Origin: Pelagomonas calceolata
Lineage: Eukaryota; Sar; Pelagophyceae; Pelagomonadales; Pelagomonadaceae
Reading direction: 5' to 3'
Assembly (NCBI GenBank): GCA_918797485.1
Contig: CAKKNE010000006.1
Span: forward strand, 2,604,001 to 2,668,000
DNA length: 64,000 bases
The notes beneath the pieces were generated by a model, which saw nothing but the letters and a program-made list of their open reading frames with translations, had not been told where the DNA came from and did no database searches. The translations under genes were made by a program, and so were the position numbers. Positions 13,698-43,559 of this stretch are shown piece by piece (position 1 is the stretch's first letter; the number at the start of each line of letters is the position of its first letter).

Positions 13698-16600
13698 ATG
13701 GCCACTACCATGAACGCCATCGCCGACGCGATCCAGCCATCCGCCCTCGAGGCGCTGCTCACGCAGACCCTGGCCGACGAGGCCGGTTTGAACGACGTGG
13801 CGGAGGGCTTCAAGCCCATCCTCGCCTACGTCGCGTCCCTCGCGTCGAACCAGTGCGTCGCCGAGACCTTCCACATGTTCGAGTGGGAGAAGACCTGCAA
13901 GGCCTACCTCGCGCCCATCCTCGCCGACGAGGAGAAGTGCGCCGCGGTCACGAAGAAGTTCATGGACGAGTCCGAGAAGCGCGTGCCCAAGCGCGAGGTC
14001 GAGCTCGACATCCCCGAGGGCGAGGGCGAGATCTTGTGTAATGTCGAGTTCAAGCTCGCCTACGGCGGCAAGATCCTGCTCAACACGACGCACTTCCACG
14101 TGCGCCGCGGCCGCATCTACGGCCTCCTCGGCCACAACGGCTGCGGCAAGTCCACGCTCATGCGCGCCATCTCGTCGGGTGCCCTCGCGGGCTTCCCCGG
14201 CGCCGAGGAGCTCATGAAGCTCCGCGCCTGCTTCGTCGACCACGACATCGACGGCTCGGACGCGAACACGCCGACGATCGACTTCTGCCTCCAGGAGCCG
14301 GTCCTCGCGCCGCTCGGCCGCGAGAAGATCCGCGAGAAGCTCCTCGAGATGGAGTTCACGGAGGAGCTCATCAACAAGCCCATCTGCAACCTGTCGGGCG
14401 GCTGGAAGATGAAGCTCGCGCTCGCGCGCGCCGTCCTCCTGAACGCCGATCTCCTGCTCCTCGACGAGCCGACGAACCACCTGGACGTCCAGAAGCAGCA
14501 GTGGCTCTGCGACTTCCTCACGGGCCCGCAGTGCGAGCACGTCACGACGCTCGTCGTGTCGCACGACTCCAAGTTCCTCAACAAGGTGCTCTCGGACGTG
14601 ATCCACTACGAGAACATGCGCCTCAAGCGCTACACGGGCAACCTCGACCAGTTCGTCGAGCAGTGCCCCATGGCCAAGGCCTACTTCTCGATCCACGACA
14701 CGGAGATGAAGTTCACGTTCCCCGTGCCGGGCCCGCTCGAGGGCGTCAAGTCGCGCACCAAGGCCATCCTCCAGGCCAAGAACATCACGTTCACCTACCC
14801 GACGTACCGCGACCGCGTCCTTTACCTTCTTCGAAGACCGATTGGCGCAACGGTAGCGCGTCAGATTCCAGTCCTGAAGGTTACGTGTTCGAATCACGTA
14901 TCGGTCACTTGTTCGACGTCGCGTCGATGGCGTGGCGGAGGCGTAGCATTCCGCTTCCCTCGAGAGTACGAACGCGCGTCGACGGTACGTTCCCCCGCAG
15001 GCCCGAGGAGAAGGCCCTGGGCCCGTCGTGCAAGACGCGCTCCGGCAAGCCGACGCTCGAGGACGTCTCCGTTCAGGTGTCGCAGGCGTCGCGCATCGCG
15101 TGCATCGGCCCGAACGGCGCGGGCAAGTCGACGCTCATCAAGGTGCTCGTCGGCGAGACGAAGCCCGACGAGGGCTGCCCCGAGGTCTACCGCCACCAGA
15201 ACTGCCGCATCGCCTACGTGGCGCAGCACGCGTTCCACCACATCGAGCAGCACCTCGAGATGTCGCCCGTCGAGTACATCCAGTGGCGCTTCTCCGGCGG
15301 CCTCGACAAGGAGCAGCAGGCCATGGAGGCGGCCCAGATGTCCGAGGAGGAAAAGGCCCAGCTCAAGCAGCCCTTCATCGTCTACCTCAAGGAGCTCGCC
15401 GCCGAGCTCGACGAGGCCGGCAACGCGACGGGCGAGCGCGAGATCATCTTCGAGAAGATGGAGCCGCTCAAGAAGGGCCAGAAGCCGCCGCCGGTCGACC
15501 CGGTCAACGGCATCTTCCCGAACTGCGTGCGCACGATCAAGCAGCTCATCGGCCGCCGCACGCGCCACGGCGACTACGAGTACGAGGTCAAGTGGGGCGA
15601 CAAGGAGATGGTCTCCATGGACCCGAAGAACAACCTCTACGTGCCCAAGGTCGTGCTCGAGACGCACGGCTTCCACAAGCTCATGAAGGCGATCGACGAC
15701 AAGATCGCCGCCGAGGCCGGCAACGTCAAGCCGCTCACGACGACGGCGATCCAGAGGCATTTGGACGACTTCGGCCTGCACGAGGAGTTCGGCACCTACG
15801 GCAAGATGAAGAACCTGTCGGGCGGCCAGAAGGTGAAGTGCGTCATCGGCGCGTCCATGTGGTTCTGCCCGCACATCGTCGTGCTCGACGAGCCGACGAA
15901 CTACCTCGACCGCGACTCGCTCGGCGCCCTCTCGCGCGCCATCAAGGAGTTCCAGGGCGGCGTGCTCATGATCTCGCACAATGCCGAGTTCTTCGGCGAC
16001 ATCGCGCCCGAGGTCTGGGAGGTGCCCGGCGACCAGAAGGTTCATGTGTCCGGCGCCGAGTGGATGGAGGCCGTTAAGGCGAAGGAATTAGCCGAGGCCA
16101 AGGCCAAGAAGAAGTCGATCCCGAAGCAGGACGACGACAAGTTTGACGCGCTCGGCAACAAGATCGAGACGGCCGTGGCGGCCGCGGACATCGACCGCGA
16201 CTACGTACCGCGACCGCGTCCTTTATATTTTCAACTCCGTGGCGCAATGGATAGCGTATCAGACTTCGAATCTGGGGGTTGCGGGTTCGAGTCCCGTCGG
16301 AGTTGACCGCGGAGGAGTCCGCCGACGGATGTTGTGGCCGAGTGGTCTAAACCCTGCGTGGGTGACCAGAGGCGCTGGTTTTAGGCACCAGTCTTCGGGC
16401 GTGGGTTCGAACCCCACCAACATCATGGCGGCTCCTCCTTCGACCGATTGGCGCAACGGTAGCGCGTCAGATTCCAGTCCTGAAGGTTACGTGTTCGAAT
16501 CACGTATCGGTCATTCATGAACGCGTGTCGACGGTACGACCCCTCCGCAGGTCAAGAAATTGACGAAGCAGCTCAAGGCGCTCAAGGAGCGCGTCAAGAA

Positions 16601-16763
16601 GGGCGACGCTTCTGCTGAGGATGAAATGTATGAAGTAGAGGAGGCCTTGGACAAGGCCAACGCGATCCTCAAGAAAGAGAAGGAGGCCGCGAAAAAAGAA
16701 AAGGAGGCCGCGAAGGCCCTGGCCAAGGCCGCCAAGGCCAAGGAGAAGAAGTCGAAGAAGTAG
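13698..16763 (+). CDS. eEF3-like ABC-F translation factor; introns carry tRNA genes
   Basis: Exons 13698-14803, 15001-16204 and 16551-16763 join in frame to 840 residues. After a short helical N-terminus, ABC1 has Walker A GLLGHNGCGKST (~144), signature NLSGGWKMKLALARA (~231) and Walker B LLLLDEPTNHLD. ABC2 has CIGPNGAGKST, signature NLSGGQKVK and IVVLDEPTNYLD. A chromodomain-like insert (RRTRHGDYEYEVKWGDKEM) sits inside ABC2, which is diagnostic of elongation factor 3. The tail is Lys-rich. The long N-terminal HEAT array of fungal eEF3 is absent, so eEF3-like is the safer name. The family uses ATP at the ribosomal E site to help release deacylated tRNA. The ATG at 13698 was chosen because upstream sequence in this frame looks non-coding. 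Codon bias is the strongest in the window, suggesting high expression. Confidence 0.93.
14804..15000 (+). other. tRNA-bearing intron 1 of the eEF3-like gene
   Basis: This GT-AG intron (197 nt, phase 2) starts GTACCGCGACCGCGTCC and ends GACGGTACG...CCGCAG. Removing it gives FTYP-T-PEEKALG in frame. The same ~21-nt 5' end and ~33-nt 3' end recur in intron 2 (16205-16550). The ends are imperfect inverted repeats of each other (GTACCG near the start, CGGTAC near the end). Inside are tRNA-Trp and the intron word CGCGTCGATGGCGTGG. Confidence 0.85.
14836..14907 (+). tRNA. tRNA-Trp (CCA), copy 1, intronic
   Basis: A full cloverleaf is visible: acceptor GACCGAT/ATCGGTC, D arm GCGC/GCGC, anticodon loop TTCCAGT (CCA), T arm ACGTG-TTCGAAT-CACGT, discriminator A. 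Position 31-39 is A-C rather than a Watson-Crick pair. No run of four T follows before the intron ends, so a normal Pol III terminator is missing. It is identical to 16442-16513. Confidence 0.93.
16233..16305 (+). tRNA. tRNA-Arg (TCG), intronic
   Basis: Acceptor AACTCCG/CGGAGTT with discriminator G, D arm GCG/GCG-type, anticodon stem TCAGA/TCTGG with loop CTTCGAA (anticodon TCG), T arm GCGGG-TTCGAGT-CCCGT. No T-run terminator follows. It lies in eEF3-like intron 2, in the same orientation as the host. Confidence 0.93.
16328..16425 (+). tRNA. tRNA-Leu (TAG) with 20-nt insert in the D loop
   Basis: Acceptor GATGTTG/CAACATC plus discriminator A, anticodon stem CTGGT/ACCAG, loop TTTAGGC (anticodon TAG), a shortened variable arm (TCTTCGGGC), and T arm GTGGG-TTCGAAC-CCCAC. 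The D region begins normally (TGGCCGAGTGGTCTA), then has about 20 extra bases (16350-16369), then resumes AGGCGC. The extra bases form a hairpin: ACCC (16351-16354) pairs with GGGT (16360-16363), and GGTC (16344-16347) pairs with GACC (16364-16367). Removing 16350-16369 leaves the standard eukaryotic GGTCTAAGGCGC. An internal TTTT at 16379-16382 could stop Pol III. Identity is certain; the intron reading is an inference. Confidence 0.85.
16442..16513 (+). tRNA. tRNA-Trp (CCA), copy 2, intronic
   Basis: Identical over all 72 nt to the tRNA-Trp at 14836-14907, including the A-C mismatch at 31-39. It is the last of three tRNAs in intron 2 and lies 37 nt before the 3' splice site. No T-run follows. 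Confidence 0.93.
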
Positions 16764-28112: not shown

Positions 28113-31100
28113 CTAGGCCGGCGCCGCGGCGGCCCGCTTCGCCAGCGCTTCAGAAAAAGCCTGTTCGCGCAGGGCAGCCGTCAAATCCGCGGGCGGGAGC
28201 GGCTCCTCGAGCGCAATCGATTCCGTGATCGCGTGGCAGACCCTATCTTTTTCCTCCGTCGAGAGCTCCTTCAGCGCCTTTAAACCATGTTTCATCCATA
28301 CTTTTTCCCGCACTTCGAGCGTGCAAGCCAGGCCGGACTCCGCGTGAAAGCATTGACACTCGATGACACGACGTTTCTCGTACAAGGACGCCATGACGAG
28401 CTGGCCGTCCAACTCCACACCCAACGTCAATAAAGCGCGGGACGTCCGCTGCGGAGAGCCCGGTCGTAAGTTATCAGGAGGCGCCGTGAGGTGGACCTCC
28501 AGAGGTTTTTCTTCGTCCGCAGGCGCCAAGACACTCTTCAGTAAAGCCTCTCCTAATATGTCCTTGTCTGCATCGGTCAGATGCGACGTCACGGGCACGT
28601 ACTTCGCCTGCTCGAGAACGTGAAGTGAAAACACGCGCTCGACCGCCCTCCAGGGACGAAGGGGGTCCATGGCCCTTACTCTAAAGCCCTCGGCCTCCTC
28701 CATCAACGTGACGGCGTAGCCCTCGTCGGTAGTGCCGTCGAAGGTCGGGGCCTCCCTCGGCTGTTTGTTGACGGCCAGTAGCAAACTCTCGAGGTCGTCG
28801 CCCTCGGAATTGTCGTCGATGACCAGTACATCCGCGGTCCGGTTCGGCGCGAAGATTAATCGATCGCCGGCGCCGTGGGCTTGCGGTACTAGAGTAAGTC
28901 CTTCACAAACTCTCTCAGCAATCAGATACGCGGCCGCGTCATCGTTGAGTGCGGAAGGCTCGCAGCCCGCCTCATCACAAGACACGATCAGCGAGTAGTC
29001 CATGAGCGCGTCGGGCTCGAAGGCCTCCACGCTCAACGCACCGTCGTCGTTGTAGATCGAACAGAGTAAATGCCGTCCGTCTTGGACCTCGACGCCCTCG
29101 GTATACAAGGCCCTTCTTTTAGTAGCCTGGCCGGGCGTGCCCGTCTTCTTGAGGGTCGTGAGTTCTGCAAAATCAGACAGGAACGGCGCCTCGAGCGCTT
29201 CGTCCTCCGCCGTCCAGGGCCGTCGGTCGGTCGTCGTGACGGGCGCCGGCTCGTCCGCCGCCGCGCCGATGTTCGCGATACCAGGTACGGAGTCCGGGAC
29301 CTTGGCCTCTTCGGCCGGCGACGCCACGCGCACCGCCGGGAAGGGGTCGTATTTCAGGGAGCCGTCAATGACCAAGTCCTTCAGTATACTTCGAGCGAGC
29401 GACGCCTGCTGTCTTCCGCTGAGCTCCGTGAGCGCGCCACCCAAATGACTCCACTGCTCTTGTAGAACAGTGCACTCCCAGAGCTTCTGGGTCCGCGTGT
29501 CGTAGGCGTGGATGCCCAGGTTGCCGTCCTGGTCGACAACCGACGCGAGGAGAAAAGCCTCGCCGACTTTCACGCCCTCCGTGAGGATCGCTCGCGCCGA
29601 CGCGACGGCGGTCTTGGGGCGCTGGGGGCTCGGCGGCGCCTCGGGCTCCGCGGCGGCGGCGGGCGCCTCGGTGGCTGGCTCCGCGGCCGGCTCCGGCGCC
29701 GGGGCCACTTGGGGCTCGGGCGCCGACTCCTCGACGGCGGCCACGTCGGGCTTGGGAGGGCTCGGCGCCTCCTCGACGGCGGCCGGCTCCTCGGCGGCGG
29801 CCGGCTCCGGGCTGCTCGGCTCGGCCTCGGCCTCGGTCGGCTCAGGCGCCGCGGCGGCCGGCGGCTCCGATGGAGCTGCTTCGTCGGCAGCCGGCGTCTC
29901 GTCAGCCGGCTCGGGCGCCGGATCCGCCGCGGGCTCGGCCGGAGGCTCGTCCGCCGGAGGCTCGGCATCCGCCGCAGGCTCGGCGGCCGGAGGCTCAGCG
30001 TCGACTGCCGGCTCGGCGGCCGGCTCGTCGGCCGGAGGCTCGGCGCTCGGCTCGTCGGCCGGCGGCTCAGGCGTCGGATCCGCCGCGGGCTCGGCCGGAG
30101 GCTCGTCTGCGGCTGCCGGCTCGGCGGCCGGCTCGTCCGCCGGAGGCTCGGCATCGGCTGCCGGCTCGGCGGCCGGCTCGTCCGCTGGAGGCTCGGCATC
30201 CGCCGCAGGCTCGGCGGCCGGCTCGGCGGCCGGCTCGTCCACCGGAGGTTCGGCATCGGCCGGAGGCTCGGCGCTCGGCTCGGCAGCCGGTTCAGGAGTA
30301 GCAGCCTTGGGCGTCGGCGGAGCGCTCGGCTCCGGAGTAGCAGCCTTGGGCGTCGGCGGAGCGCTGGGCTCCGGTGTGGCGGCCTTGGGCGTCGGCGGAG
30401 CGCTCGGCTCCGGAGTCGCGGCCTTGGGCGTCGGCGGAGCGCTCGGCTCCGGAGTCGCGGCCTTGGGCGTCGGAGGAGCGCTCGGCTCCGGAGTCGCGGC
30501 CTTGGGCGTCGGCGGTGCGCTGGGCTCCGGATTGGGCTCAGCGGGCGGCTCGGCGACGTCTTCGTCCGCGGGCGGCGCTTCCGCCGGGTCCGCGAGGGGC
30601 GCGCCGCCGTCGCCGCCGTCATCCTTTGTCGCGACCGTGCCGTCGTCGACCGTCGAGTCGTCCTGCGCCGCGACGACGGCAGCCGAGATCTCGGCCGCGG
30701 CCTCCTGCGCCGCCTCGCTCGGCTCGGCGTCCACGGCCGGCGCCGCGTCGTCCACGGCCTCGCTCGGCGGCGTGGGCGTGGGCTCGGGCGTCGGCGGTGA
30801 TGGCGTCGGCTCAGCCGAAGGCTCAGGCGTCGGATCTGCCTGTGGATCTGGCGTCGGCTCGGCCGGCGGCTCAGCCGCGGGCTCGGCGTCTGGCTCCGGC
30901 GTGGCAGCCTTGGGCGACGGTGGCGCGCTGGGCTCCGGCGTAGGGTCAGCGGCAGGCTCCGGGTCGGCAGCAGGCTCAGGGTCGGCCGCAGGCTCCGGCG
31001 TAGGGTCCGCGGCAGGCTCAGGGTCGGCGGCGGGCTCCGGCACAGGGTCGGCGGCTGGCTCAGGATCGGCGGCGGGCTCCGGCGCAGGGTCCGCAGCAGG

Positions 31101-34100
31101 CTCCGGGTCGGCAGCAGGCTCCGGCGCAGGGTCCGCGGCAGGCTCAGGGTCGGCGGCGGGCTCCGGCGCAGGGTCGGCGGCAGGCGCAGGGTCCGCGGCA
31201 GGCTCAGGGTCAGCTGCAGGCTCCGGCGCAGGGTCCGCGGCAGGCTCAGGGTCGGCGGCGGGCTCCGGCGCAGGGTCGGCGGCAGGCGCAGGGTCCGCGG
31301 CAGGCTCAGGGTCAGCTGCAGGCTCCGGCGCAGGGTCCGCGGCAGGCTCAGGGTCGGCGGCGGGCTCCGGCGCAGGGTCGGCGGCAGGCGCAGGGTCCGC
31401 GGCAGGCTCAGGATCAGCTGCAGGCTCCGGCGCAGGGTCCGCGGCAGGCTCAGGATCAGCTGCAGGCTCCGGCGCAGGGTCCGCGGCAGGCTCAGGGTCA
31501 GCAGCAGGCTCCGGCGCAGGGTCCGCGGCAGGCTCAGGGTCCGCAGCGGGCTCCGGTGCAGGGTCCGCGGCAGGCTCAGGGTCCGCAGCGGGCTCCGGCG
31601 CAGGATCGGCGGCGGGCTCCGGCGCAGGGTCCGCAGCGGGCTCGCTAGGAGCTTCGGCTGCGACGCTGTCGTCCGCGGCTTCAGACGGCTCTGGCGTCGG
31701 TTCCGGCGTCGGCTCCGCGGGCGCGGCCGCGGGCTCCGACGGCGGCGTCGCTGGAGCGGCCGGCTCGGCCGCCTCGGGCGTCGGCGGAGCGCTCGGCTCC
31801 GGCGTGGCAGCCTTGGGCGTCGGCGGCGCGCTGGGCTCGGGCGTGGCGCTCGCGGCCGCCGCCGGCGCGGCGGCCTTGGGCGGCGTCGCGGCGGCCGGCG
31901 CGTCGAGCGCGTCGGCGACGGCCGTGCCACCCGGAGGAGACGCCTCGGGCGGCGGCGTCGCGGCCGGCGAGGCCTGGGCCGCCTTGGGCGGCGTGCGCTC
32001 CGCATCTTCGGCCGGGGCCGGCGGCTCGACGGGCCGCGGCGACGCCTCGACGGCGGCCGCGAGGCGCGCCTCCTCGTCGGCGAGGGCCTGAGCCGCCGCC
32101 GCGGCCTTCTCGCGCTCCGCCTCCTCGAGGGCCGCCGCTTTAGCAGCCGCGGCCTCCTCCTCCTTGGCCTTCGCCTCCGCAGCAGCAGCCTTCTCCGCCT
32201 CGAGGCGCTCGGCCTCCTCGGCCGCGGCGAGCTTCTCCTGCTCCGCTTTCAGCGCTTCCTCCTCGGCGGCGAGTTCGGCCTCGAGGGCGGCCCGCTCGTC
32301 GTCGTTCGCTGACTGCAGCGCGGCCTTCTTCTCCTCCAGCGCTTGAGCTTTGGCGCGCTCCGCTTCCACAGCATCGGCCTTGGCCTGAGCGGCAGCGTCG
32401 GCCTTGGCCCGGGCCTCGGCCTGGGCTTGTGCCGCTTCGGCAGCCTGCGCCTCGGCCGCGCGCTTGGCCTCCTCCGCCTGTTGAGCCTTCTCCGCAGCTA
32501 AAGCTTGCTCCTCGTTCGCCTCGGCGGCTTTGGCCTGAGCCTCGACCAGCTCCTGTTCCGCCGCATCTTCCAACTTGATGGACGACTTCAAGACCTCCTG
32601 CTTCTCCTTCTGCTCCTCGACCAAGGTTTCGACCTCCTGGCGGCGGACCGACGCCTCGGCGCGCGCGCTCTCGACTGCCTCGGTGTGCGCCTGGACCTTC
32701 TCCAGATCTAGGTTGAGAGCCGCGGCCTGGGCCTCGGCTTCATTGGCGCGCCTTTCAGCTTCTTCCCGCTTGGCCTGGGCCTCGGCCTGGACCCTGGCTT
32801 CGTCGTCGGCGCGCCGTTGCGCCGCCTCGGCGGCTTCTCGCTCCTCCGCTTCTTTCTGGGCCGCCTGTGCGGCGGCCTCCTGCTCCTGCGCCGCTTTACG
32901 ATCGGCCTCGGCGGCCTTGGCAGCTTCTTCCTGTTCCAGAGCTTCGGCTTCGGCCAGCTTGGCCTGCTCCGCAAGTAAAGCCTCCTCCTCGGCGCGCATC
33001 TCCTCCTCCAGAGCCGCGCGCGCGGCGGCGTCGTCCTCCAGGGCGGCGAGCTTCGCTTTCTGTTCCGCGATCTTCGCTTCGCGTGCCTCTTGGGCCTCCT
33101 GGGCTTCACGCTTCGCTTGCGCGGCCGCGTCGGCCTTGGCCTGGGCCTCGGCCTGGAGGCGTGAAGCCTCCTCGGCCTGCTGGGCGGCTTTAGCTTTGGC
33201 CTCGGCCGCTTCGGCCCGCTTGGCCTCCTGGGCCTCGTTCGCGAGGCGCGCCTCTTCGGCCTTCTCGCGGGCGGCGACGAGCGCGCGCTCGGCCTCCTCC
33301 TCCTTCTTCAACTCGGCCTTGAGCTGCTCGGCCTTCTGGCGGGCGCTGTCCAACTGGGCCTCCGTGGCCTGGCGCCGCGCGGACGTCTCCTCGCGCGCGG
33401 ACTCGACCTCTTGGACCTGCTGCTCGACTTTTTCAAGGTCTAAACTCATCTGCGCGGCCTTGGCCTCGGCCTCCTCGGCGCGCCTCGCCGCTTCCTCGCG
33501 CTTGAGCTGGGCCGCTTCTTCTATTCGTTTGGCCTCGGCGGCGTCCTCGTCCGTTTGTTCGGGAGTTGGGTCGGCGGGCTCGGGCGTCGGATCTGCCTGG
33601 GGTTCCGGCGTCGGCTCGGCCGGCGGCTCGGCGACAGGCTCCGGCGTGGCGGCCTCGGGCGACGGCGGCGCGCTGGGCTCCGGCGTGGCGGCCTTGGGCT
33701 CCGGCGCAGGTTCGGCAGCAGGCTCAGGGTCGGCGGCAGGTTCAGGGTCCGCGGCAGGCTCAGGGTCCGCAGCGGGCTCCGGTGTAGGATCGGCAGCTGG
33801 CTCAGGGTCGGCAGCTGGCTCAGCCGGTGGCTCCGGGGCCGGCTCATCAGCGACCGGCTCATCAGCCGGGGGCTCCGCGGTCGGTTCCGAAGGAGGCTCG
33901 ACGGGCGGCTCAGCCGGAGGCGTGGGCTCCGCAGCGGGCTCCGGAGTGGGCTCCGCGGCCGGCTCATCAGCGGTGGGCTCAGCGGCCGGCTCGGCCGTAG
34001 GCTCCTCAGCGGGCTCCGCGGCCGGCTCATCAGCTGTGGGCTCATCAGCGGTGGGCTCATCAGTGGTGGGCCCGTCAGCGGCCGGCTCATCAGCGGCCGG

Positions 34101-37100
34101 CTCAGCTGGGGGCTCGGCCATAGGCTCAGCCGGTGGCTCCGCGGTTGGCTCATCAGCGGTCGGCTCAGCCGGAGGCTCCGCTGTGGGCTCATCAGCGGCT
34201 GGCTCATCAGCGGGCTCATCAGCAACCGGCTCAGCCGGAGGCTCCGCTGTGGGCTCATCAGCGGCCGGCTCCGCAGTCGGCTCGTCAGCGGCCGGCTCAG
34301 CCGCAGGCTCGGCCGTGGGCTCCTCAGCGGGCTCCGCGGTCGGCTCGTCAGCGGCCGGCTCAGCCGTCGGCTCGGCCGTAGGCTCATCAGCTGCGGGCTC
34401 CGCGGCTGGCTCATCAGCGCTCGGCTCATCAGCGGCCGGCTCAGCCGTAGGCTCAGCCGGTGGCTCCGCGGTTGGCTCATCAGCGGTCGGCTCATCAGCC
34501 GCCGGCTCAGCTGGTGGCTCAGCCGCAGGCTCGGCCGTGGGCTCCTCAGCAGGCTCCGCGGTCGGCTCCTCGGGCTCCGCGGACGGCTCCTCAGCGGTCG
34601 GCTCAGCGGTCGGCTCATCAGCGGCCGGTTCCGCGGTCGGCTCATCAGCCGCCGGCTCAGCTGGTGGCTCAACGGTGGGCTCCTCAGCGACCGGCTGAGC
34701 GGTGGGCTCCTCAGCGGGCTCCGCGGCCGGCTCATCGGCGGCTGGCTCAGCCGCAGGCTCATCAGCCGGGGGCTCCGCAGGAGGCTCCTCCGTCGGCTCA
34801 GTCGTAGGCTCGGCCGTGGGCTCCGCAGCGGGCTCCGCGTCTGGCTCCGAAGCAGGCTCGGCCGTAGGCTCCGGCGCAGGCGGCTCGGCCGTGGGCTCCT
34901 CCGACGCGGCTTCGGCGATAGGCTCGGCCGGCGCGGGCGCAGCAGCGGCCACGGCGGGCGTCGGCGCGGCCGCCGGGACGGGCTCCGGCGCCTCGTCGTC
35001 GCTCGCCTTGGGGCTCTCGGCAGCGGTGACCGGGTCGATGACCGTCACGGGCGACGACTCGCGCGGTGAGACGGCCTCGGGCACGGGTTCGCGCGGCGAC
35101 GCGGTGGAGAGCCGGGCCTGGCGCGCGGTCGCGGGCGTCGTCGGCGCCTCGGGCTCGGCCTCGGTCGGCGCGGGCTCCTCCTCGACGTCGATGGGCTCGG
35201 GCACCGGGACGGGCGCCGCCGCCGGTTCGACGGCTTCGACCGGCTCCTCGGGCGCGGAAGGCTCGTCGTCGGCCGCGACGTCGACGGCCGGGGGGCTCTC
35301 GGCGGCGGCGGGGGCGGCGACCGGCGAGGCCGCGGCGACCGGCGTGATGGGCGACGGCGGGGCGCTCGGCTCCGGGCTCGGCTCCGGCGTGGCCGCCTCG
35401 GGACGGGCGAACGGGACGGGCGTGGCCGTCGCGAGCGACCGCTCGTCGTCGTCGGCGACGGCGACCGGCGCGCGCGACGGCGCCGTCGCCGCCGTCGCGA
35501 GCGACTTCTCGGACACGGCGAGCGACCGCTCGTCCTCCTCGGGCTCCGGCGCCGCGAGCGGCTCGCCGAGCGCGACGCCGCTCGCCTTGCGCGCCTCGTA
35601 GGTCGTCTGGACCGTGGCGACGAAGGACGCGAGCTCCTGCGCCGACAGGGAAGCGAGCCGCGCCTCGAGGTGAGCCGCCAACCGCACCTCCACTAGAATG
35701 GAGCCGCGCTTGACCGACACGATCTCGATCTCTTCACTAGAAACGTCGAGCAGCTCCGAGAGCGACGACAGGAAGGCCTCCCGCTCGAACGTCTCGGGCG
35801 TGCCCTCGAGCCGCAGGACGCGCGTCGGCAGATTCACCTTCAGCGCGCCGTCCTCGACGGTCAGCCGCGACGTCAGGTCGATGCAGTCCTGCCGGTCGAA
35901 GTCGCCTGATAATTCCAGGGTATAAACCTGCCCCCGCGCGACCGACAGCGCCTCGACCACGAAACCTTCCGAGGATTTGAGGAAGGAGCACGACAGGCAC
36001 CCAGCGCCGGGCACATCAACCAAAGCCGTGTGCACGCAGTCGGCCGACTGCACCGGCGTATCATCATAGATCGTCGCGTCGCACGCATCTAAATCGTACG
36101 CGTCCGCATCCACGTCATCGGGCAGGCCCCACAACGCGATGGGGTCCTCGTAGGACCCCAGGCCCTTGGGCGCGGCGTCGCGCGCCCAGGGCGGCAGCGT
36201 CTCGACGACGCTGATGCGCTTCGTCTGCTCCTCGGGCGTCGTCATCGGCCGCGCCATCGTCGCCGGCGCGCTCGCGGGTTCGATCAGGGTCTCGTAGTCG
36301 TCGACCTTCGGTGAAGGAGCCGGCGCCGCAACGGGGGCGCCGACCGGGGCGAACGGCACGGGCGCGCCGACCGGCGCCGGCGCGAAGGCCGGCGCCGCGA
36401 CCGGCGTGGACGCCGCGCCGGGCGCCGGGGCCGGCGCGAACGCCGGCGCGCGGGCCGAAGCCATCGGCGACACCATCGGCGAGGCCGCGGCCGTGCCGGG
36501 CGCGGGCGCCGGCGCGCGGGCAGAAATCAAAGGCGAGGCCGCGACGCCCGGCGCGGGAGCGAGGGCCGGCGAGAGCGATGCCGGCGCCGGCGCGCGGGCC
36601 GAGACCATCGGAGAGGCTGCGGTGGCCGGCGCGGGCGCGCGGGCTGAAATCAGCGGCGACGCAGCGCCCGGCGCCGGCGCGGGCGCCAGCGGCGCGGGCG
36701 CCGGCGGGGCGAGCGCGACGGGCGCCAGCACGAGGTCCCGGGCCGCGGCCGCGACGGCGGCGTCGTCGGCGGCGTCGGCGGCCTGGGCGACGTCCGCCGT
36801 CTCCGCGAGGGCCTCGGCGAAGGCCTCGTCGGCCGCGGCCGCGACGTGGGCCGGCGGCGCCGGCGCCGGCGCCGCGGGCAGGGGCGCCGCTGCAGCCGGT
36901 GCCGGCGCGCTGACGGGTGCGGCGCTCGGCGCCGGGGCCGGGCCCTTCTTCTTCGGCCGCCGGCTGGGCGGCCGCGTCTCGGCCGTCTCGGCGTCCTGGA
37001 GGGCGACGTCCGTGCGGTCCGCGGCCGCGGCGTCGACCTGCTTCGACGGCGTGGCCGGCCCGACGACGATCGTCCCCGAGTCCTCGAGCGACACGTCGAG

Positions 37101-40100
37101 CTTGAGCGGGTCGCCGAGCGCCGTGCCGGGCGCCGGCGCGGCCTCCTCGAGGGGCTCGTCCTCCTTGAGGGGCGTCAGCTCGGGCCGCGGCGACCTCTCG
37201 AGGGGCGTCAGCGCGGCGGCCGGTGCCGGCGCGGTCGTGGGCGCCGCCGCGGCCGGTGCCGGTGCGCGGGCCGAGATCGGCGTCGACGCGGCCGGCGCGG
37301 GCGCGCGGGCTGAGACAATGGGCGAGGCAGCCACGCCCGGCGCGGGGGCCGGCGCGCTCACCGGCGCGATATGTAATGCAACAGCGACCTCCTCGGCCGC
37401 GCGCGCGGCCTCGGCCTCGGCAAACTCCACATCGTCGGGCTTGGCCTCGAGTGCCTCGACGCGCGCGGCCTCCGCCGCCACGGCGACGGCTTCCGGAGAG
37501 GCGCCGGGCGCCGGTGCTGGTGCGCTGATGTGCGCGAGCACGGCCGCGGCGACCGGCGCCTCGACCTCGGCCTCGTCGAGCGTCTTCTGGACGACGGCCT
37601 CGGCGGCGGCCTGGGCGACCTCCGCCGCGGCCGCGGGGCTGCCCGTGGCTTCCAGCGCCGCGGCGTAGGCCTCTTGATGGACCTCGTCGGAGACGCCCTC
37701 GACGACCTCCTCGGCCGCGGCGACGGCCTCCGCGTCCGCCGGCGCAGGTGCGGGCGCCGCGGCCGGGCCGTCGGCGGCGTCGGGGCCTGGTCCCGCCTCT
37801 TCGGCGGGGCCCGGCGCGCTCGCGGGCGCCGGCGACGGCGGCGCCGCGGCCACCGGCGCCGGCCCGGCGCTCTCCTCGAACTCGGAAAAGGCCTCGTCGT
37901 CGTAGGCGTCGGCGGACTCCTCGAGGGCCGCCGCCGCCGCGGGCGCGGCGACCGGCGCGGGCTCGTCGAAGTCCTCGGCGCCGTAGCTCTCGTCGACGTC
38001 CGTCGGCGCGGCGGACGGCGCGGCGGCGGTGGCGGGCTCGGGCGCCGCGACGGGTTCCGAAACTCCGGCGCTCTCCTCGAACTCCGAGGCCCCGTAGCTC
38101 TCGTCGACGTCCGTGGCGGCCACCGAGGGGGCGACCGAGGGCACCGCCGAGGGCACGACGACCTGCTCGGACGAGGCCTCCTCGGGCGCCGCGACGGGCT
38201 CGGGCGCCGCCTCGACGGCCGACGACGACAGCTCCGTCGGGCCCTTGCTCTCCTCGAGCTCCGAGAACTCGTCGGCGCCGTAGCTGTCCTCGACGTCCGT
38301 GGCGGCGGGCGTTGGTGTTGACGGTTCCGCGGCGGGCGCGGGCTCCGCGGCGTCCGCATCGGCGGCGGGCGCCGGCGCCGCCGGTCCGGCCGCGCCGGTG
38401 CTCTCCTCGAAGTCCGACGCGCCGTAGCTCTCGTCCGCGTCCGTGGCTGCGGCGGAGGGCGCGGCGGCTGGCTCCGACGCCTCGGAGGCGGGCGCGGGCC
38501 CGGCGACCGGCGAGGCGGGCTCAAAGTCCGAGGCGCCGTAGCTCTCGTCGACGTCTGTCGGAGCGGCGGAGGGCGCGGCGACCGGTGCGGGCTCGTCGAA
38601 CTCCTCGGCGCCGTAGCTCTCGTCGACGTCTGTCGGAGCGGCGGAGGGCGCGGCGGCGGGCGCGGCGACCGGTGCGGGCTCGTCGAACTCCTCGGCGCCG
38701 TAGCTTTCGTCGACGTCCGTTGGCGCGGCCGAGGGCGCGGCGGCAGGCGCGGCGACCGGTGCTGGCTCATCGAACTCCTCGGCGCCGTAGCTCTCGTCAA
38801 CGTCCGTCGGCGCGGCCGCCGGCTCGGCAGCCTCGGAGGCAGGCGCAGGTCCCGGCGCATCAGCGCTCTCCTCGAAGTCCTCGGCGCCGTAGCTCTCGTC
38901 GACGTCGGCGGCGTCGGCGGCGGGCGCCGGCGCGGGCTCGGCCGCCTCTTCGACGGCCGGCTCCTCGGCCGCTTCGGCCGCCGGCGCCGGCGCGGCGGCC
39001 TCCTCGCCTTCGGGCTCGGCGGCCTCCTCGGCCTCGGCTGCCGGCGCGGGCGCGGCGGCCTGAGCGTCGGCCTCGACGAGCACCGCGCGTTTCTCCGTCG
39101 CCGCGACGACGGCCGCGTGGTCCTCGGCCACGCCGGCCTCCGTGCACGCGAGCAGCGCGGCGTCGATGGCCTCGACGTCGGCCGCGGCCTCGAGCGCCGC
39201 GACGGCCGCGACGCGCTTCTCCTCCGCGAGCTTGAGGACGACCTCCTCGCGCCGCGCCGCCGCGGTCTTCGTGCCGTCGGCGTCGTCGGGCAGGCCGACC
39301 TCCGCGCAGTGTAGCAACGCGGCGTCGATCGCGGCGAGGTCCTCGGTCGCGCACGCGGCCTCGAGCGCCTTCAAGGCGTCGACGCGCGCCTGCTCGGCGA
39401 CGAGCTCCGCGCGTTTCGCGGAAGCCGTCACCCGTGCGTCGTCGTCGGCGGCGACGCCCACAGTATCAGCCTTGGCGAGGGCCGCGTCGATTAATTCGAC
39501 GGTGTCGGCCGCGGTTAATGAAGCGAGGGCCTCCTGCTTCGCCTCTTCCGCGGATAGGGCGGCTAATCGCTCCGCCTCGAGGCGGTCGGCCTCGGCCTGC
39601 TCCGCAGCTAACCTTTCCGCCTCGACGCGCTCGGCCTCGGCGGCCCGTTCGGCCTCCAAAGCAGCAAGCTCGTCGCGCCGCGCTTCGGCGGTGGCGAGGT
39701 CCTCGACGCCCTTCTCCTTCGCGTCAGCGAGCGCCGCCTCCAAAACGGCGAGGTCGTCGCCCTCCGCCGCCGCATTCAAAGCCTCCGCGGCAGCAGCCTT
39801 GTCCTCCTCGGCCTTCAGAGCAGCTAATCTCTCAGCCTCCAATCTCTCAGCCTCGGCCTTCTCCGCGGCTAATCTCTCGGCCTCGGCCTGTTCCGCAGCC
39901 AATCGCTCATTTTCAATACGCTCGGCCTCGAGCCGCTCAGCTTCGATTCTCTCAGCCTCTAACCGTTCGAGCTCGGCCTTTTCCGCGGCGAGTCGCTCGG
40001 CTTCCACTCGTTCCGCCTCCAGCCTCTCAGCCTCGATACGCTCAGCCTCCAGCCTCTCGGCCTCCAAACGCTGTCGCTCCGCTTCCTCAGCAGCCAATCT

Positions 40101-43100
40101 CTCGGCCTCGGCCCGCTCCGCAGCGATCCTCTCCTGCTCGAGCCTTTCAGCCTCGGCCTTCTCGGCCAGAATGCGTTCCTTCTCGGCCTTTTCTTTAGCT
40201 TTCCGTTCCTTCTCGAGGCGTTTCTCTTCTTTCTTTTCCGCTTTCCGACGTTTCGCCTCGGCCTTCTCGGCGGCTTTCCGTTCGAGCATCTCCTGCTTCT
40301 CGCGCTCCTTCCGTTCCGCCTCTTCCTTTGCAAGTTTTTCGGCTTCGACGCGTTCCGCTTCGAGGCGCTCGGCCTCGGCGTGCTCCGCCTCTCGGCGCGC
40401 GTCTTCTTCCGCCTGCCGCGCTTCTTCTTCCGCCTTCTTTCTAGCGGCTCTGGCAGGCACGACAACAGCGGCCACGCGCTCGTCCTCTTGTTGTCTTTCT
40501 TCCATAGAACCGAAGAGAGGCTCGACGACTGGCGCTTCCGCATGATCACCGAACATCGACGACTGTTGCGGTAGTGCGCGCGTGTCGTCGTAGCCGCGCT
40601 GCTCCTCCACCATTTGATGAACTCGAGCATCTAAGCGTAGTACCAATACACCTCTGGTGGTATTCGCGTCGACCTGACCTCGCATGTCGATCTCGCAGGC
40701 ATCGGCCAGAGCTGCTGCTAGCGACCGTTTCTCGGCCGGTGTGAGTTCGTACAAGGCACCGTAGCCGATCTGGTACCACTCTTGTTCCGACGCCTGGACC
40801 TGGTCCCCGGTTTTCGGCATATACAGAGTGAGCTTGTCACCCTCTTCATACACCTCGATCTTCTCCCCAGATTGGGTCTTGGCCTTGAGGAGGACCGGAC
40901 CACTGGGAGGCTCCTTCTTGACCTTCTGGAGAGGCAGCTCCGTGACCACCGGTTGAGGGTCGGGCGTGAAATGCGACCTTTCTTCTACCACCGACAGATC
41001 ATCAGACTGCTTCAGGACGGGGGGCGACCGATCAGTAGCCGGCCCTTCATGCGCGCCGGGCGTGATGGGCCGTCTGATTTCTTCCATCGTCATCGTTTCC
41101 GCTTTGCCTTGTCTGCGGGGTTTCCGAGTAGTGGCGGCAGAAGTCGGCCTGGACGCCCCCGTGCCTCTATCAACCTTGCCGTCCTTGGAACGGGGCGGCG
41201 TGAGCGAAGCCGCTCGCGAGACGGACTTGGACTTCGGTCTCTCTTCGTCGGGAGTTTGTAATAGAGCATGCGCTCTGGGATCATTCTGAGCTTTGGTTCT
41301 AGGCGTATCCTCCTCATTCACGTGGGGGGGCTTGTAGGCGTGGTCGCCGCCGGGCGCGAAGTCCAACGATGGCCTTAATTTAAGTCCCATATCTGCTGCT
41401 GCTGTTTTCGGAGCTACTAAAGCCGATAGATCAGGCCTAGGCGACGCGCGCACCTTGAGAGCGAGCTGGCCGTTCTTCAACTCGAGATCAGAAGACAACA
41501 CGGCAGCCAGGGCCTCCTTCTCCGGCCTTAGTAAAAAGGATAGGGGCCCATAACCGGTAGCCGCCCACATACTACTTTCAACTGTTAATTCTTTTTTGGC
41601 CTGCGTCACGAATTTCAGAGCATCGCCCTTCTCATACGCATTTACTTCCCCTAAACCAGGTTGGGTAGAGGTACACAGTAACAGAGGGTCCAATTGAGCC
41701 TTGGCAGTTTGCGTTTCCCGGAAAAGATCCTCGGGCGACTTGCCACTTTCTTCAAACTGCACGGAAGTTTGCGTAGAAATGGGTATCTCGAGGTCGTACC
41801 ACTCCTGCTTGGAGAAGGGCATCTTGTCAAGGTCGGCCGTTAGTTTTGGCGCCTCCGTGCCCACGACCCTCGTACAAGCACTGAGGGAGGTACAGACCTT
41901 CTGCTTCTGGTCCAACGACATGGTCTTCCAGCCCTCGATGACTGCTTCTAATTGTGACTGTAACACTGAGCCTTCCACTCGGTCATCAGTTAAAGCTGTG
42001 TAAGCTTCTAACACCAAGCCTTCCGGATGGACGATGATATTCAAGAGAAGATGAGTCCCATGCGCATCTTGGACCGCGCCCCGATACAGCGCGGGTCCAT
42101 CTCTATCGCGGTTGAGCAATTTGACCTTGGCAGCTTCCGCGTCACCCTCAGCATTTTTACGAGATTTCCTTAAACGAGCCCGTTCCGCTTCCGCTTGTTT
42201 GCGCGCTTCGGCCTCGAGCCGCTCCTTCGACTGCTGGTCGGCGATCATCCTCCGCCGCTTGTCGGCCTCTTCCTGTCTACGTCTAGCTTCGGCACTTCTC
42301 TTGTCATCAAGCTCTTTTTGTTTTTTGGCCCTTAACCTAGCGCGTTCCGCCGCTAACACAGGATCGTGCAACATGAGATCTACTTGGATCTTCGCGAGCA
42401 TGATGCGGACCCTCTTTTGTAATTGAATAGCAGCATTGCCGGCAATTTCCCGGATTTTGGCCAGTAAGGGGCCTAGTCGCGCCTTGTCCGCGGCCTCCGC
42501 ATACGACACGACAGGTAAATAGTCGTACTCCGGCGAGATCTTCGGCGTCGGCTTCACGCCGTACTCATTTGCGGCCACACCTCGGTTGCGACTACGCATC
42601 AACTGGAGTTGCTGCTCCTCGCCGAGCGGCGACACGTTGTGGTCCCGCTTCGTCTGCAGCACATGGATGTAGACATGCGCCCCGAAGCCCTTGACCCGCT
42701 CCAGGTGCTCTTGTTTAAAAGGCACGGGACTCCCGTCCGGCAGGACAAAGGCGAAGCGCGGCGGTACGTCGCGCGACGGCACCATCTGCGCGTCGATCAG
42801 CGTCTTTCGTAAGTCGCGAAGAGTGTCCTCCTTGTCGTACTCCACAAATCCGAGCGGCCCCGTCGCGCCTCGGACTCTTATGGCAATTTGCGGCGGTTGG
42901 TTATTAATCTTCGATTGTATTGATTGTGTTCCTTGGGATTCATACATCGAACCGAGCGCGGGGTCGGCCCAGTTGTTGTTCGGCTCGTCGACGTATTTGA
43001 TGGGGGGTGGGTTCATGAGTGGATCGGGGCCCATCTGAGCTGTTTTAGGTCTTTGTACTGTGGCAAATGATTCTTCGCCCCAGGCCTTGAACAATGGTGT

Positions 43101-43559
43101 CGGGTCGTCCGTGTCCATCGTCGCGTCATCAACAACGGCCTCAAAGGGCCTCGAGGACCTCTTAGCAGTTAATAAAGATGGAACCATGTCCGCGATCGGC
43201 ACCTCGAAGGCCGGCAAGGCACTCACGTCGGGCGTCCTTACGAGACGAGACAAAGGCTTGTCCATGCGCGGCTTGGACTGCTGCAACAACTCCAACGAAT
43301 TCGTCCCGACCATTTCCGTGAAGTGCCTCCGGAAGGACTCGCCTCTGGCAAACACGCAGTAGTCGTCGGTCAACGCGTCGTACTTGCCGAGGATCTGCTC
43401 CTGCTTCACATTCCTAGAGTCCCAGCCTCCTTCGAGCTTCTTGAGTCGTTTGCGGCTTGGCCGCTTCCTCAAAGGCCGCATGGCGCCGCCGCGCAACGCG
43501 CTGCGGTCGACCTGGAGCGGCTGGCGCGTGCGCTTTTGCGGGCCTAGGTCGACCCCCAT
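28113..43559 (-). CDS. giant 5,148-residue repeat protein with novel repeated module
   Basis: One uninterrupted 15.4-kb frame from ATG 43559. The N-terminal ~250 residues are basic then mixed. Residues ~220-300 ([23 protein letters not shown] onward) look ubiquitin-like or doublecortin-like. An IQ-like helix ([16 protein letters not shown]) follows at ~375. A ~75-90-residue module recurs about eight times: three near residues 490-970, one near 2510, and four at the C-terminus (~4660-5130). It is typified by LLxSxY, G-x-L-x-V-x-A and a late LT-x-x-D/E-K. Between are long charged coiled coils (~1040-1350 and ~3340-3840), YGAEEFDE repeats (~1550-1920), and Glu/Pro/Ala arrays. Absence of introns over 15 kb is unusual here. 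A cytoskeletal scaffold is possible; function is unknown. Confidence 0.8.
30303..30536 (-). repeat. 39-bp coding minisatellite ([13 protein letters not shown]), six copies
   Basis: Six near-identical 39-bp units in the giant ORF encode the 13-mer [13 protein letters not shown]. Differences are mostly silent. The TP sites could be proline-directed kinase targets, which is an inference. Confidence 0.85.
30950..31640 (-). repeat. 42-bp minisatellite with 102-bp higher-order unit
   Basis: The base unit encodes [14 protein letters not shown] (42 bp). In about 31165-31470 two base units plus a short DPAPAA form a 102-bp block repeated about three times in a row with almost no change, a sign of recent block-wise expansion. 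Confidence 0.85.
33840..34800 (-). repeat. irregular Ala-Asp-Glu-Pro repeat tract
   Basis: Units such as AADEPTAEP and PAEPPAEP recur with variable length over about 960 bp. The DNA words GGCTCATCAGC and GGCTCCGC alternate. It is less regular than the tract at 30950, so probably older. Confidence 0.8.
37960..38910 (-). repeat. [13 protein letters not shown] repeat tract
   Basis: About ten copies of an acidic motif around D-E-S-Y-G-A-x-x-F-E/D-E, separated by Ala/Pro linkers; the best three units are ~87 bp and nearly identical (38540-38800). The aromatic-acidic core resembles short linear binding motifs. Confidence 0.8.

What the first reader, a model, noticed from the sequence alone, without database searches (positions are those of the whole stretch)
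16328..16425. tRNA-Leu(UAG) with a probable D-loop intron in a bulge-helix-bulge-like fold
The 4-bp helix GGTC/GACC is bordered by three-base unpaired stretches TAA (16348-16350) and AGA (16368-16370), above an ACCC/GGGT hairpin. Cutting after the second base of each stretch, as tRNA endonuclease does at BHB sites, would remove exactly 20 nt and leave GGTCTAAGGCGC, the usual eukaryotic Leu D loop. Eukaryotic nuclear tRNA introns normally sit at 37/38; D-loop introns are known mainly from archaea, red algae such as Cyanidioschyzon, and nucleomorphs. The opposite strand has GAGT facing AGA, so the motif is relaxed.
Basis: partly seen in the sequence, partly recalled or inferred. Interest (0 to 1): 0.85.

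Follow-up and report, generated by a model that had tools for sequence, protein, structure and literature searches.

The report
Leucine tRNA with hidden D-loop intron
A transfer-RNA gene of a tiny ocean alga is interrupted at an unusual place by an apparently removable 20-letter insert; several of its other tRNA genes look broken up in the same way, and this one sits inside an intron of a protein gene.

Summary
The window fits the nuclear genome of the pelagophyte alga Pelagomonas calceolata (contig make-up). The tRNA-Leu(UAG) at 16328-16425 carries a 20-nt insert (16350-16369) at 21/22 in a relaxed bulge-helix-bulge. All six Leu(UAG) genes found carry an insert at that site (19, 20 or 23 nt). 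Hairpin stems differ but stay paired, and all splice to the same D arm. Other isoacceptors show ectopic introns too: Leu(UAA), Leu(AAG), Leu(CAA), Ser(UGA), Val, Pro, Ala, Lys. Intronless Leu(UAA) copies have exactly the predicted D arm. Sen2-like and Sen34-like endonucleases and RtcB are encoded. New context: the gene lies, with Arg and Trp tRNAs, inside a spliceosomal intron (16205-16550) of an eEF3-like gene, whose ends match an introner-like family; 12 of 21 sampled hits of its 5' motif carry tRNA-Trp. None of the six Leu(UAG) genes has a T-run terminator. No RNA evidence was available, so excision is inferred. I read it as a new variant of a known kind: disrupted tRNA genes as in Cyanidioschyzon, here in a stramenopile and carried by mobile-looking introns.

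The parts
16328..16425 (+). tRNA-Leu(UAG) gene with D-loop intron
   Evidence: Rfam tRNA 52.6 bits; splice-and-score call, raw 26.0
16328..16349 (+). 5' exon, ends at A21 (numbering assigned by hand)
   Evidence: sequence; spliced D arm matches intronless Leu(UAA) paralogs
16350..16369 (+). predicted 20-nt tRNA intron at 21/22
   Evidence: relaxed BHB geometry; 17 of 20,000 shuffles as good; six of six copies found
16370..16425 (+). 3' exon
16344..16347 (+). BHB central helix, exon strand GGTC
16364..16367 (+). BHB central helix, intron strand GACC
16348..16350 (+). 5' bulge TAA; predicted cut after 16349
16368..16370 (+). 3' stretch AGA; predicted cut after 16369
16351..16363 (+). intron hairpin ACCC-TGCGT-GGGT; GCTC/GAGC in four copies and TAACC/GGTTA in one copy elsewhere
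16404..16414 (+). B box GGTTCGAACCC, intact; the A box TGGCCGAGTGG (16335-16345) is also uninterrupted
   Evidence: pattern hit; sequence
16233..16305 (+). tRNA-Arg(UCG) in the same host intron
16442..16513 (+). tRNA-Trp(CCA) in the same host intron
16205..16550 (+). host spliceosomal intron B (346 nt) of the eEF3-like gene; ends GTACCGCGACCGCGTCC ... GTCGACGGTACG...CCGCAG
   Evidence: removal with intron A leaves an open frame of 951 codons matching elongation factor 3A across the junction
14804..15000 (+). host intron A (197 nt) with the same ends, holds tRNA-Trp 14836-14907
15001..16204 (+). exon of the eEF3-like gene between the two introns
16551..16763 (+). last exon of the eEF3-like gene, ends KKSKK-stop (TAG)

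Best explanation
16328-16425 is a working tRNA-Leu(UAG) gene whose D loop is interrupted at 21/22 by a 20-nt intron. In the precursor the intron folds back on the exon as a relaxed bulge-helix-bulge (GGTC/GACC with an ACCC/GGGT hairpin above it). The tRNA splicing endonuclease (Sen2-like and Sen34-like catalytic subunits) would cut after the second base of each unpaired stretch, and RtcB would join the exons into a 78-nt tRNA with a normal Leu D loop. The gene is one of six Leu(UAG) copies found, all interrupted at the same site, in a nuclear genome where several other tRNAs have ectopic introns. It lies with Arg and Trp tRNAs inside a spliceosomal intron of an eEF3-like gene. Shown: the anatomy, the conservation in six copies, the compensating stems, the paralogs with and without introns, the presence of endonuclease and ligase genes, and the host intron (by frame and homology). 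Inferred: that the precursor is made, cut and joined, and that this enzyme does it.
For: Six of six Leu(UAG) genes found carry the insert at the same site with lengths 19, 19, 19, 19, 20 and 23; stems are ACCC/GGGT (one), GCTC/GAGC (four) and TAACC/GGTTA (one). Mature sequences differ by 0 or 2 bases (one compensated acceptor pair), while intron identities range from 0.40 to 0.95. Shuffles as good for the six introns: 4 to 17 of 20,000. Leu(UAA): 4 genes with a D-loop intron (TCATC/GATGA, TCGTC/GACGA twice, TCTTC/GAAGA) and 6 without, same mature D arm. Val(UAC) and Pro(CGG) also occur with and without introns. Ser(UGA): 6 of 6 found with a T-arm intron at 53/54. Endonuclease domain in two ORFs; the eukaryotic chains matched are mostly Sen2 for one and Sen34 (weakly) for the other; full-length RtcB. 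Such introns are reported from Cyanidioschyzon merolae and the Guillardia theta nucleomorph, and excision of the nucleomorph ones was confirmed by RT-PCR (PMC4090602, PMC9602550, passages).
Against: No RNA data were available. The 3' side is not a clean 3-nt bulge. The yeast endonuclease is reported to cut only at 37/38 (PMC4033280, passage), so a more permissive enzyme must be assumed; both candidate subunits match archaeal endonucleases better than Sen chains, and Sen54 and Sen15 were not searched. The six copies are paralogs in related arrays, so the covariation rests on few independent events (three stem types). None of the six has a T-run terminator nearby, so expression is not self-evident.
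Confidence: 0.87

Rival explanations
1. The tRNA is dead cargo. The Leu(UAG) copies came along with intron-borne arrays, are not expressed as tRNAs, and CUA codons are read by an inosine-modified Leu(AAG).
For: Two of the six copies lie in modelled host introns and the other four have intron-like flanks, one of them with an unclear 5' end; none has a T-run terminator. A Leu(AAG) gene with a T-run exists (C1:4684922). PMC4090602 says that insertions in D or T arms are mostly found in one of many synonymous eukaryotic tRNA genes and are taken for pseudogenes (passage).
Against: Here six of six copies found have it, not one of many. The mature sequence is almost invariant while introns diverge; the window copy's acceptor change is compensated on both sides; hairpins compensate. 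Dead copies would not be expected to do that.
Confidence: 0.08
2. The insert is never removed; the tRNA works with an enlarged, hairpin-bearing D loop.
For: The insert folds as a hairpin in every copy; no RNA data exclude it.
Against: Length and sequence vary between copies while the splice-site geometry is kept. Leu(UAA) has intronless copies with exactly the predicted D arm. Ser(UGA), Leu(AAG), Leu(CAA) and Val have inserts inside stems or at 53/54 that a mature tRNA could hardly keep.
Confidence: 0.03
3. The hairpin is a chance or assembly artefact (duplication, long-read error) with no splicing meaning.
For: The published assembly is long-read based, polished with short reads (PMC9481584, passage).
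Against: Six loci on three contigs, different insert sequences, same geometry; 4 to 17 of 20,000 shuffles as good; 0 calls in two shuffled sets.
Confidence: 0.01

Closest known systems
[quoted passage not shown]
   Same: Introns in D, anticodon and T arms, with 12/13 and 53/54 among the reported sites (PMC9602550 passages); BHB motifs at junctions and Sen homologs (PMC4090602 passages). Leu(AAG) here is at 12/13 and Ser(UGA) at 53/54.
   Different: A stramenopile, not a red alga; some isoacceptors occur with and without introns in one genome; some of the genes lie inside spliceosomal introns.
Non-canonical tRNA introns of cryptophyte and chlorarachniophyte nucleomorphs (Guillardia theta, Bigelowiella)
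   Same: Short introns (3 to 24 nt in G. theta) in the D and T arms; excision was confirmed there by RT-PCR (PMC4090602 passage).
   Different: Those are endosymbiont remnant nuclei; here it is the main nucleus, and the inserts form clear hairpins.
Archaeal non-canonical BHB introns (20/21, 22/23, 25/26 and others)
   Same: Same type of motif; neighbouring D-arm sites (PMC4090602 passage).
   Different: A eukaryotic genome; 21/22 is not in the list quoted in that passage, which ends with 'etc.'
Introner elements (transposon-like spliceosomal introns, Aureococcus and others)
   Same: Repeated introns with near-identical ends and, in part, a 6-nt inverted repeat GTACCG/CGGTAC. Guerin et al. noted a 210-bp intron peak in P. 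calceolata that fits introners (PMC9481584 passage).
   Different: These copies carry tRNA genes. The word tRNA occurs 0 times in the main texts of PMC9481584 and PMC9860276.

Membership tests
BHB-type (protein-spliced) tRNA intron | 4-bp central helix between exon and intron, flanked by two 3-nt bulges with the cuts after the second base | tested here: inconclusive
   The 4-bp helix can form in all six copies; in the predicted folds the 5' bulge is there but the 3' side is relaxed and partly paired, and the 23-nt copy folds somewhat differently
BHB-type (protein-spliced) tRNA intron | Excision leaves a normal tRNA | tested here: met
   Raw score 26.0 after excision; D arm as in intronless Leu(UAA)
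BHB-type (protein-spliced) tRNA intron | Structure kept while intron sequence changes | tested here: met
   Three stem types in six copies, all paired
BHB-type (protein-spliced) tRNA intron | Splicing endonuclease and ligase encoded | tested here: met
   PF01974 in two ORFs, Sen2-like and Sen34-like; RtcB. Sen54 and Sen15 not searched
BHB-type (protein-spliced) tRNA intron | Excision shown on RNA | not testable with these tools
   No RNA reads held
Ectopic nuclear tRNA introns as in Cyanidioschyzon | Intron away from 37/38 | tested here: met
   21/22 here; 20b/21, 12/13, 13/14 and 53/54 elsewhere in the genome (numbering by hand)
Ectopic nuclear tRNA introns as in Cyanidioschyzon | Permuted tRNA genes in the same genome | tested here: inconclusive
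   Six stand-alone tRNA 3'-half-like elements seen, not resolved; no dedicated search for permuted genes was made
Introner element (host intron of this gene) | Many introns with near-identical ends | tested here: met
   5' motif: 37 hits at up to 1 mismatch against 16 for the reversed control; of 21 hits in 20 newly fetched stretches, 12 hold tRNA-Trp elements
Introner element (host intron of this gene) | Terminal inverted repeats | tested here: met
   GTACCG/CGGTAC in both window introns; found in 1 of the 3 cyclophilin introns
Introner element (host intron of this gene) | Target-site duplication and mobility | not tested
   No empty-site comparison was made; no relative genome held
Group I or II self-splicing intron | Conserved catalytic core, far longer than this insert (group I about 100 nt or more) | tested here: not met
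   Insert is 20 nt; at gathering scores Rfam finds only tRNA in the window

The most novel reading that the evidence does not exclude
In P. calceolata several tRNA isoacceptors, among them Leu(UAG), Ser(UGA), Trp, Arg(UCG) and Ala(UGC), are supplied mainly by tRNA genes carried inside introner-like spliceosomal introns of housekeeping genes. They lack Pol III terminators and would be released from host pre-mRNA introns, much as intron-encoded snoRNAs are, and some then need a second, BHB-type splicing step. This would be a Russian-doll arrangement in which selfish-looking introns spread working tRNA genes.
Probability: 0.4. Interest if true: 0.92.

Novelty: new variant of a known kind. Interest (0 to 1): 0.82.

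Why it matters
In the passages that I read, ectopic tRNA introns in eukaryotes are described from one red alga's nucleus and from nucleomorphs. A third, unrelated host would show that the eukaryotic splicing endonuclease can be permissive elsewhere, and would give intron-plus and intron-minus paralogs in one genome for studying gain and loss. The alga is widespread and culturable. Nesting in introner-like introns would link tRNA gene spread, intron gain and two different splicing systems in one testable organism, and a standard tRNA finder misses or misreads the gene.

Tried and rejected
Considered and rejected: a self-splicing intron (20 nt is too short); a pseudogene among intact copies (no intact Leu(UAG) copy found); virus-carried relatives (one pattern scan of viral contigs found 0; the tool says records near this genome may be left out). 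Reassignment of UAA/UAG, suggested by tRNAs with UUA and CUA anticodons, got no support from HSP70 (18 matches, none with an in-frame TAA/TAG, one with one TGA); the flanks of the two intact UUA genes look intron-like. MAFFT misaligned the longest intron, so I did not use the count of structure pairs; compensation is stated from the per-copy stems. A CCGCGGCCGCGTCC element upstream of tRNAs was first taken for a promoter. Within 130 nt upstream of tRNAs it was present (up to 2 mismatches) at 11 of 93 against 26 of 500 random places, and those random places were drawn from the same tRNA-rich loci; it turned out to be the 5' end of host introns. Weak calls that I do not count as evidence: both introns of a Gln-like gene at C4:3843211, the acceptor-stem introns of Ile(AAU) and Lys(UUU). 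Introns in Glu, Tyr and Gln genes were seen by eye only.

Limits: the tRNA census is partial. It rests on T-arm patterns of one type (333 matches, palindromes counted twice) and on the stretches that I fetched: 120 small ones, besides loci; not all pattern hits were fetched. The scan used 141 merged nuclear pieces. T-run counts are lower bounds where the fetched flank was short. Of the 37 hits of the host-intron motif, 21 were newly fetched, 8 lay in loci already held and 8 were not looked at. Papers were read in passages only (PMC3978253, PMC4090602, PMC9602550, PMC4033280, PMC9481584, PMC10366177, PMC9860276); Soma et al. 2013 on Cyanidioschyzon is not held. No report of tRNA introns or tRNA-bearing introners in Pelagomonas or other pelagophytes showed in the listings of searches, which cover open-licence PMC papers only and listed at most 20 papers each; most listed papers were not opened.

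Full report
Origin. The window is G000:C6:2604001-2668000 of a 32,445,274-base genome in 8 contigs; the two small contigs are 90,574 and 39,373 bases and carry organelle-type tRNAs. Guerin et al. 2022 describe Pelagomonas calceolata RCC100 as six nuclear contigs of 32.4 Mb, a 90-kb plastid and a 39-kb mitochondrial contig, with duplicated ends of contigs 1/5 and 3/6 (PMC9481584, passages). I take the window to be from that nuclear genome. The word tRNA occurs 0 times in that paper's main text.

Observation. The gene, the GGTC/GACC helix, the TAA and AGA stretches and the ACCC/GGGT hairpin are at the stated coordinates. Rfam scores the gene 52.6 bits with a long D-loop insertion. Excision of 16350-16369 leaves GGTCTAAGGCGC. 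Of 20,000 shuffles of the insert, 17 give as good a motif at that exact place.

Copies. A search of the whole genome gave six Leu(UAG) genes (6 candidates, all scored). A search with the spliced form gave no intronless Leu(UAG) gene (15 matches: the six UAG loci, two of them in two pieces each, six intronless Leu(UAA) genes and one Leu(AAG), assigned by position). All six carry an insert at the same site: 20 nt in the window, 19 in four, 23 in one. Stems are ACCC/GGGT, GCTC/GAGC and TAACC/GGTTA, so three base pairs have changed on both sides. The central helix is unchanged. The 3' stretch is AGA in four and CTA in two. The first base of the 23-nt intron excludes a sliding splice site, so the site is 21/22 (numbering by hand). 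Mature sequences are identical in five copies; the window copy differs at two positions that form a compensated acceptor pair (TTG...CAA against ATG...CAT), while intron identities range from 0.40 to 0.95.

Other tRNAs. I collected T-arm patterns genome-wide, fetched 120 small stretches and scored 141 merged nuclear pieces (99,321 bases) with a script that removes up to two BHB introns and scores the spliced cloverleaf. It made 93 calls, 26 of them with introns (28 introns), and none in two shuffled sets. Leu(UAA) occurs four times with a D-loop intron one base upstream (after T20b) and six times without. The four stems TCATC/GATGA, TCGTC/GACGA (two) and TCTTC/GAAGA again compensate. Ser(UGA) has a 25-29-nt T-arm intron at 53/54 in six of six genes found. 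Leu(AAG) has one at 12/13, Leu(CAA) at 13/14, Val(UAC) at 12/13 (with an intronless relative at C5:5025040), Pro(CGG) at the border of D and anticodon arms in three genes (with an intronless relative at C4:4052152), Ala(CGC) in the D loop (exact site uncertain), and Lys(UUU) near the variable loop (positions by hand). The weak calls are named in Tried and rejected. Ten of the 26 intron-bearing genes, weak calls included, have a run of five T within 45 nt downstream; the other 16 (six Leu(UAG), six Ser(UGA), four Leu(UAA)) do not. So both stand-alone, Pol III-like genes and array genes carry ectopic introns.

Machinery. Two ORFs carry the catalytic endonuclease domain. One also has the EndA N-terminal domain, and its eukaryotic matches in solved structures are mostly Sen2; the other has a SAP domain and its eukaryotic endonuclease matches are Sen34, weakly (E 0.0008 to 0.0015). 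Both match archaeal endonucleases better. Tyr, His and Lys candidates for the catalytic triad can be read in both (sequences; triad from recall). A full-length RtcB ligase is encoded at C5:639988-641304. Sen54 and Sen15 were not searched.

Where the gene sits. The tRNA cluster is inside a protein gene. Two stretches with the same ends, 14804-15000 and 16205-16550, interrupt an eEF3-like gene; with both removed an open frame of 951 codons remains, which matches elongation factor 3A (561 bits in two aligned stretches), one stretch running across each junction. The first intron holds Trp, the second Arg, Leu(UAG) and Trp. At C1:4451081-4452868 three tRNA-packed introns of 761, 251 and 556 nt interrupt a cyclophilin gene that is complete when they are removed (PF00160, E 1.3e-47). 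The first of these holds another of the six Leu(UAG) genes. The arrays of the other four have intron-like flanks next to coding-looking sequence: three with a GT start and a CAG end, one (C2:5199062) with a CAG end and a 5' end that I could not place. I did not model their host genes.

The host introns look like introners. Their ends share GTACCGCGNCCGCGTCC and CGACGGTAC or close variants, with a 6-nt inverted repeat in both window introns and in one of the three cyclophilin introns. The 5' motif has 37 hits genome-wide at up to one mismatch, against 16 for the reversed control, so a good part may be chance. Of 20 further stretches fetched (21 of the 37 hits), 11 hold tRNA-Trp (12 elements) and 9 hold no tRNA by either method, one of these with a tRNA-like remnant seen by eye. 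Across 13 Trp elements (the 12 and window intron A) the tRNA bodies are 98.3% identical on average and the spacer behind them 35%, over 78 pairs; for two elements the script did not find the 3' end and a fixed stretch was used. So the tRNA part is held constant while the rest drifts. This fits selection on the tRNA, a role of the tRNA in the element itself, or gene conversion.

How it probably works. Shown: anatomy, conservation, compensation, host gene frame, enzymes. Inferred: the array is transcribed, either from its intact A and B boxes by Pol III or as part of the eEF3-like pre-mRNA. End processing and BHB excision then yield a normal Leu(UAG). The 21/22 site leaves the A box whole. The lack of a T-run behind the six Leu(UAG) genes favours, but does not prove, release from a longer transcript.

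What is known. Reviews and one research paper read in passages describe ectopic tRNA introns in nuclear genes of Cyanidioschyzon merolae and in nucleomorphs, and one states that D- or T-arm insertions elsewhere in eukaryotes are mostly found in one of many synonymous genes and taken for pseudogenes. Searches named in Tried and rejected showed no report for pelagophytes or for tRNA-bearing introners. The introner survey PMC9860276 mentions tRNA 0 times and Pelagomonas 0 times in its main text. I therefore file the intron as a new variant of a known kind.

Noticed in passing
11 of the 20 loci L200-L219 (stretches at hits of the host-intron 5' motif) and window 14804-15000: A family of about 140-200-nt introner-like introns that each carry a tRNA-Trp gene; bodies 98.3% identical, spacers 35% over 13 elements.
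   Followed up: partly
G000 C4:3250088-3250018, C6:2576350-2576420, C2:979908-979831 (7-nt insertion), C4:2222134-2222064: tRNA genes with stop-reading anticodons UUA (three, one disrupted) and CUA (one), with T at the discriminator position as in eukaryotic tRNA-Gln (recalled); HSP70 genes show no in-frame TAA or TAG.
   Followed up: partly
G000 C1:4451370, C1:4452478, C1:5549817, C2:1777138, C2:5199228, C2:6056284: Six stand-alone tRNA 3'-half-like elements with fully paired T stems of four kinds; five have the leader GGACTGGAA after a G or C context and all have GGACTGGAA, complementary to the Trp anticodon loop. A Trp 5' half without a 3' half lies near C1:4452765. Split, permuted or decayed Trp genes.
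   Followed up: partly
G000 C1:4451081-4452868: A cyclophilin gene with three consecutive introns packed with tRNA genes.
   Followed up: yes
window 28113-43559, minus strand: One open reading frame of 5148 codons that includes the most GC-rich part of the window.
   Followed up: no
window 39043-39137, minus strand: ARAGORN reports an unassignable tRNA-like hit inside that long frame; Rfam at gathering scores does not confirm it.
   Followed up: no
L048 1324-2229 minus; L049 1075-2010 plus: The Sen2-like protein scores higher against archaeal endonucleases than against Sen2 chains, and the Sen34-like protein carries a SAP domain.
   Followed up: partly
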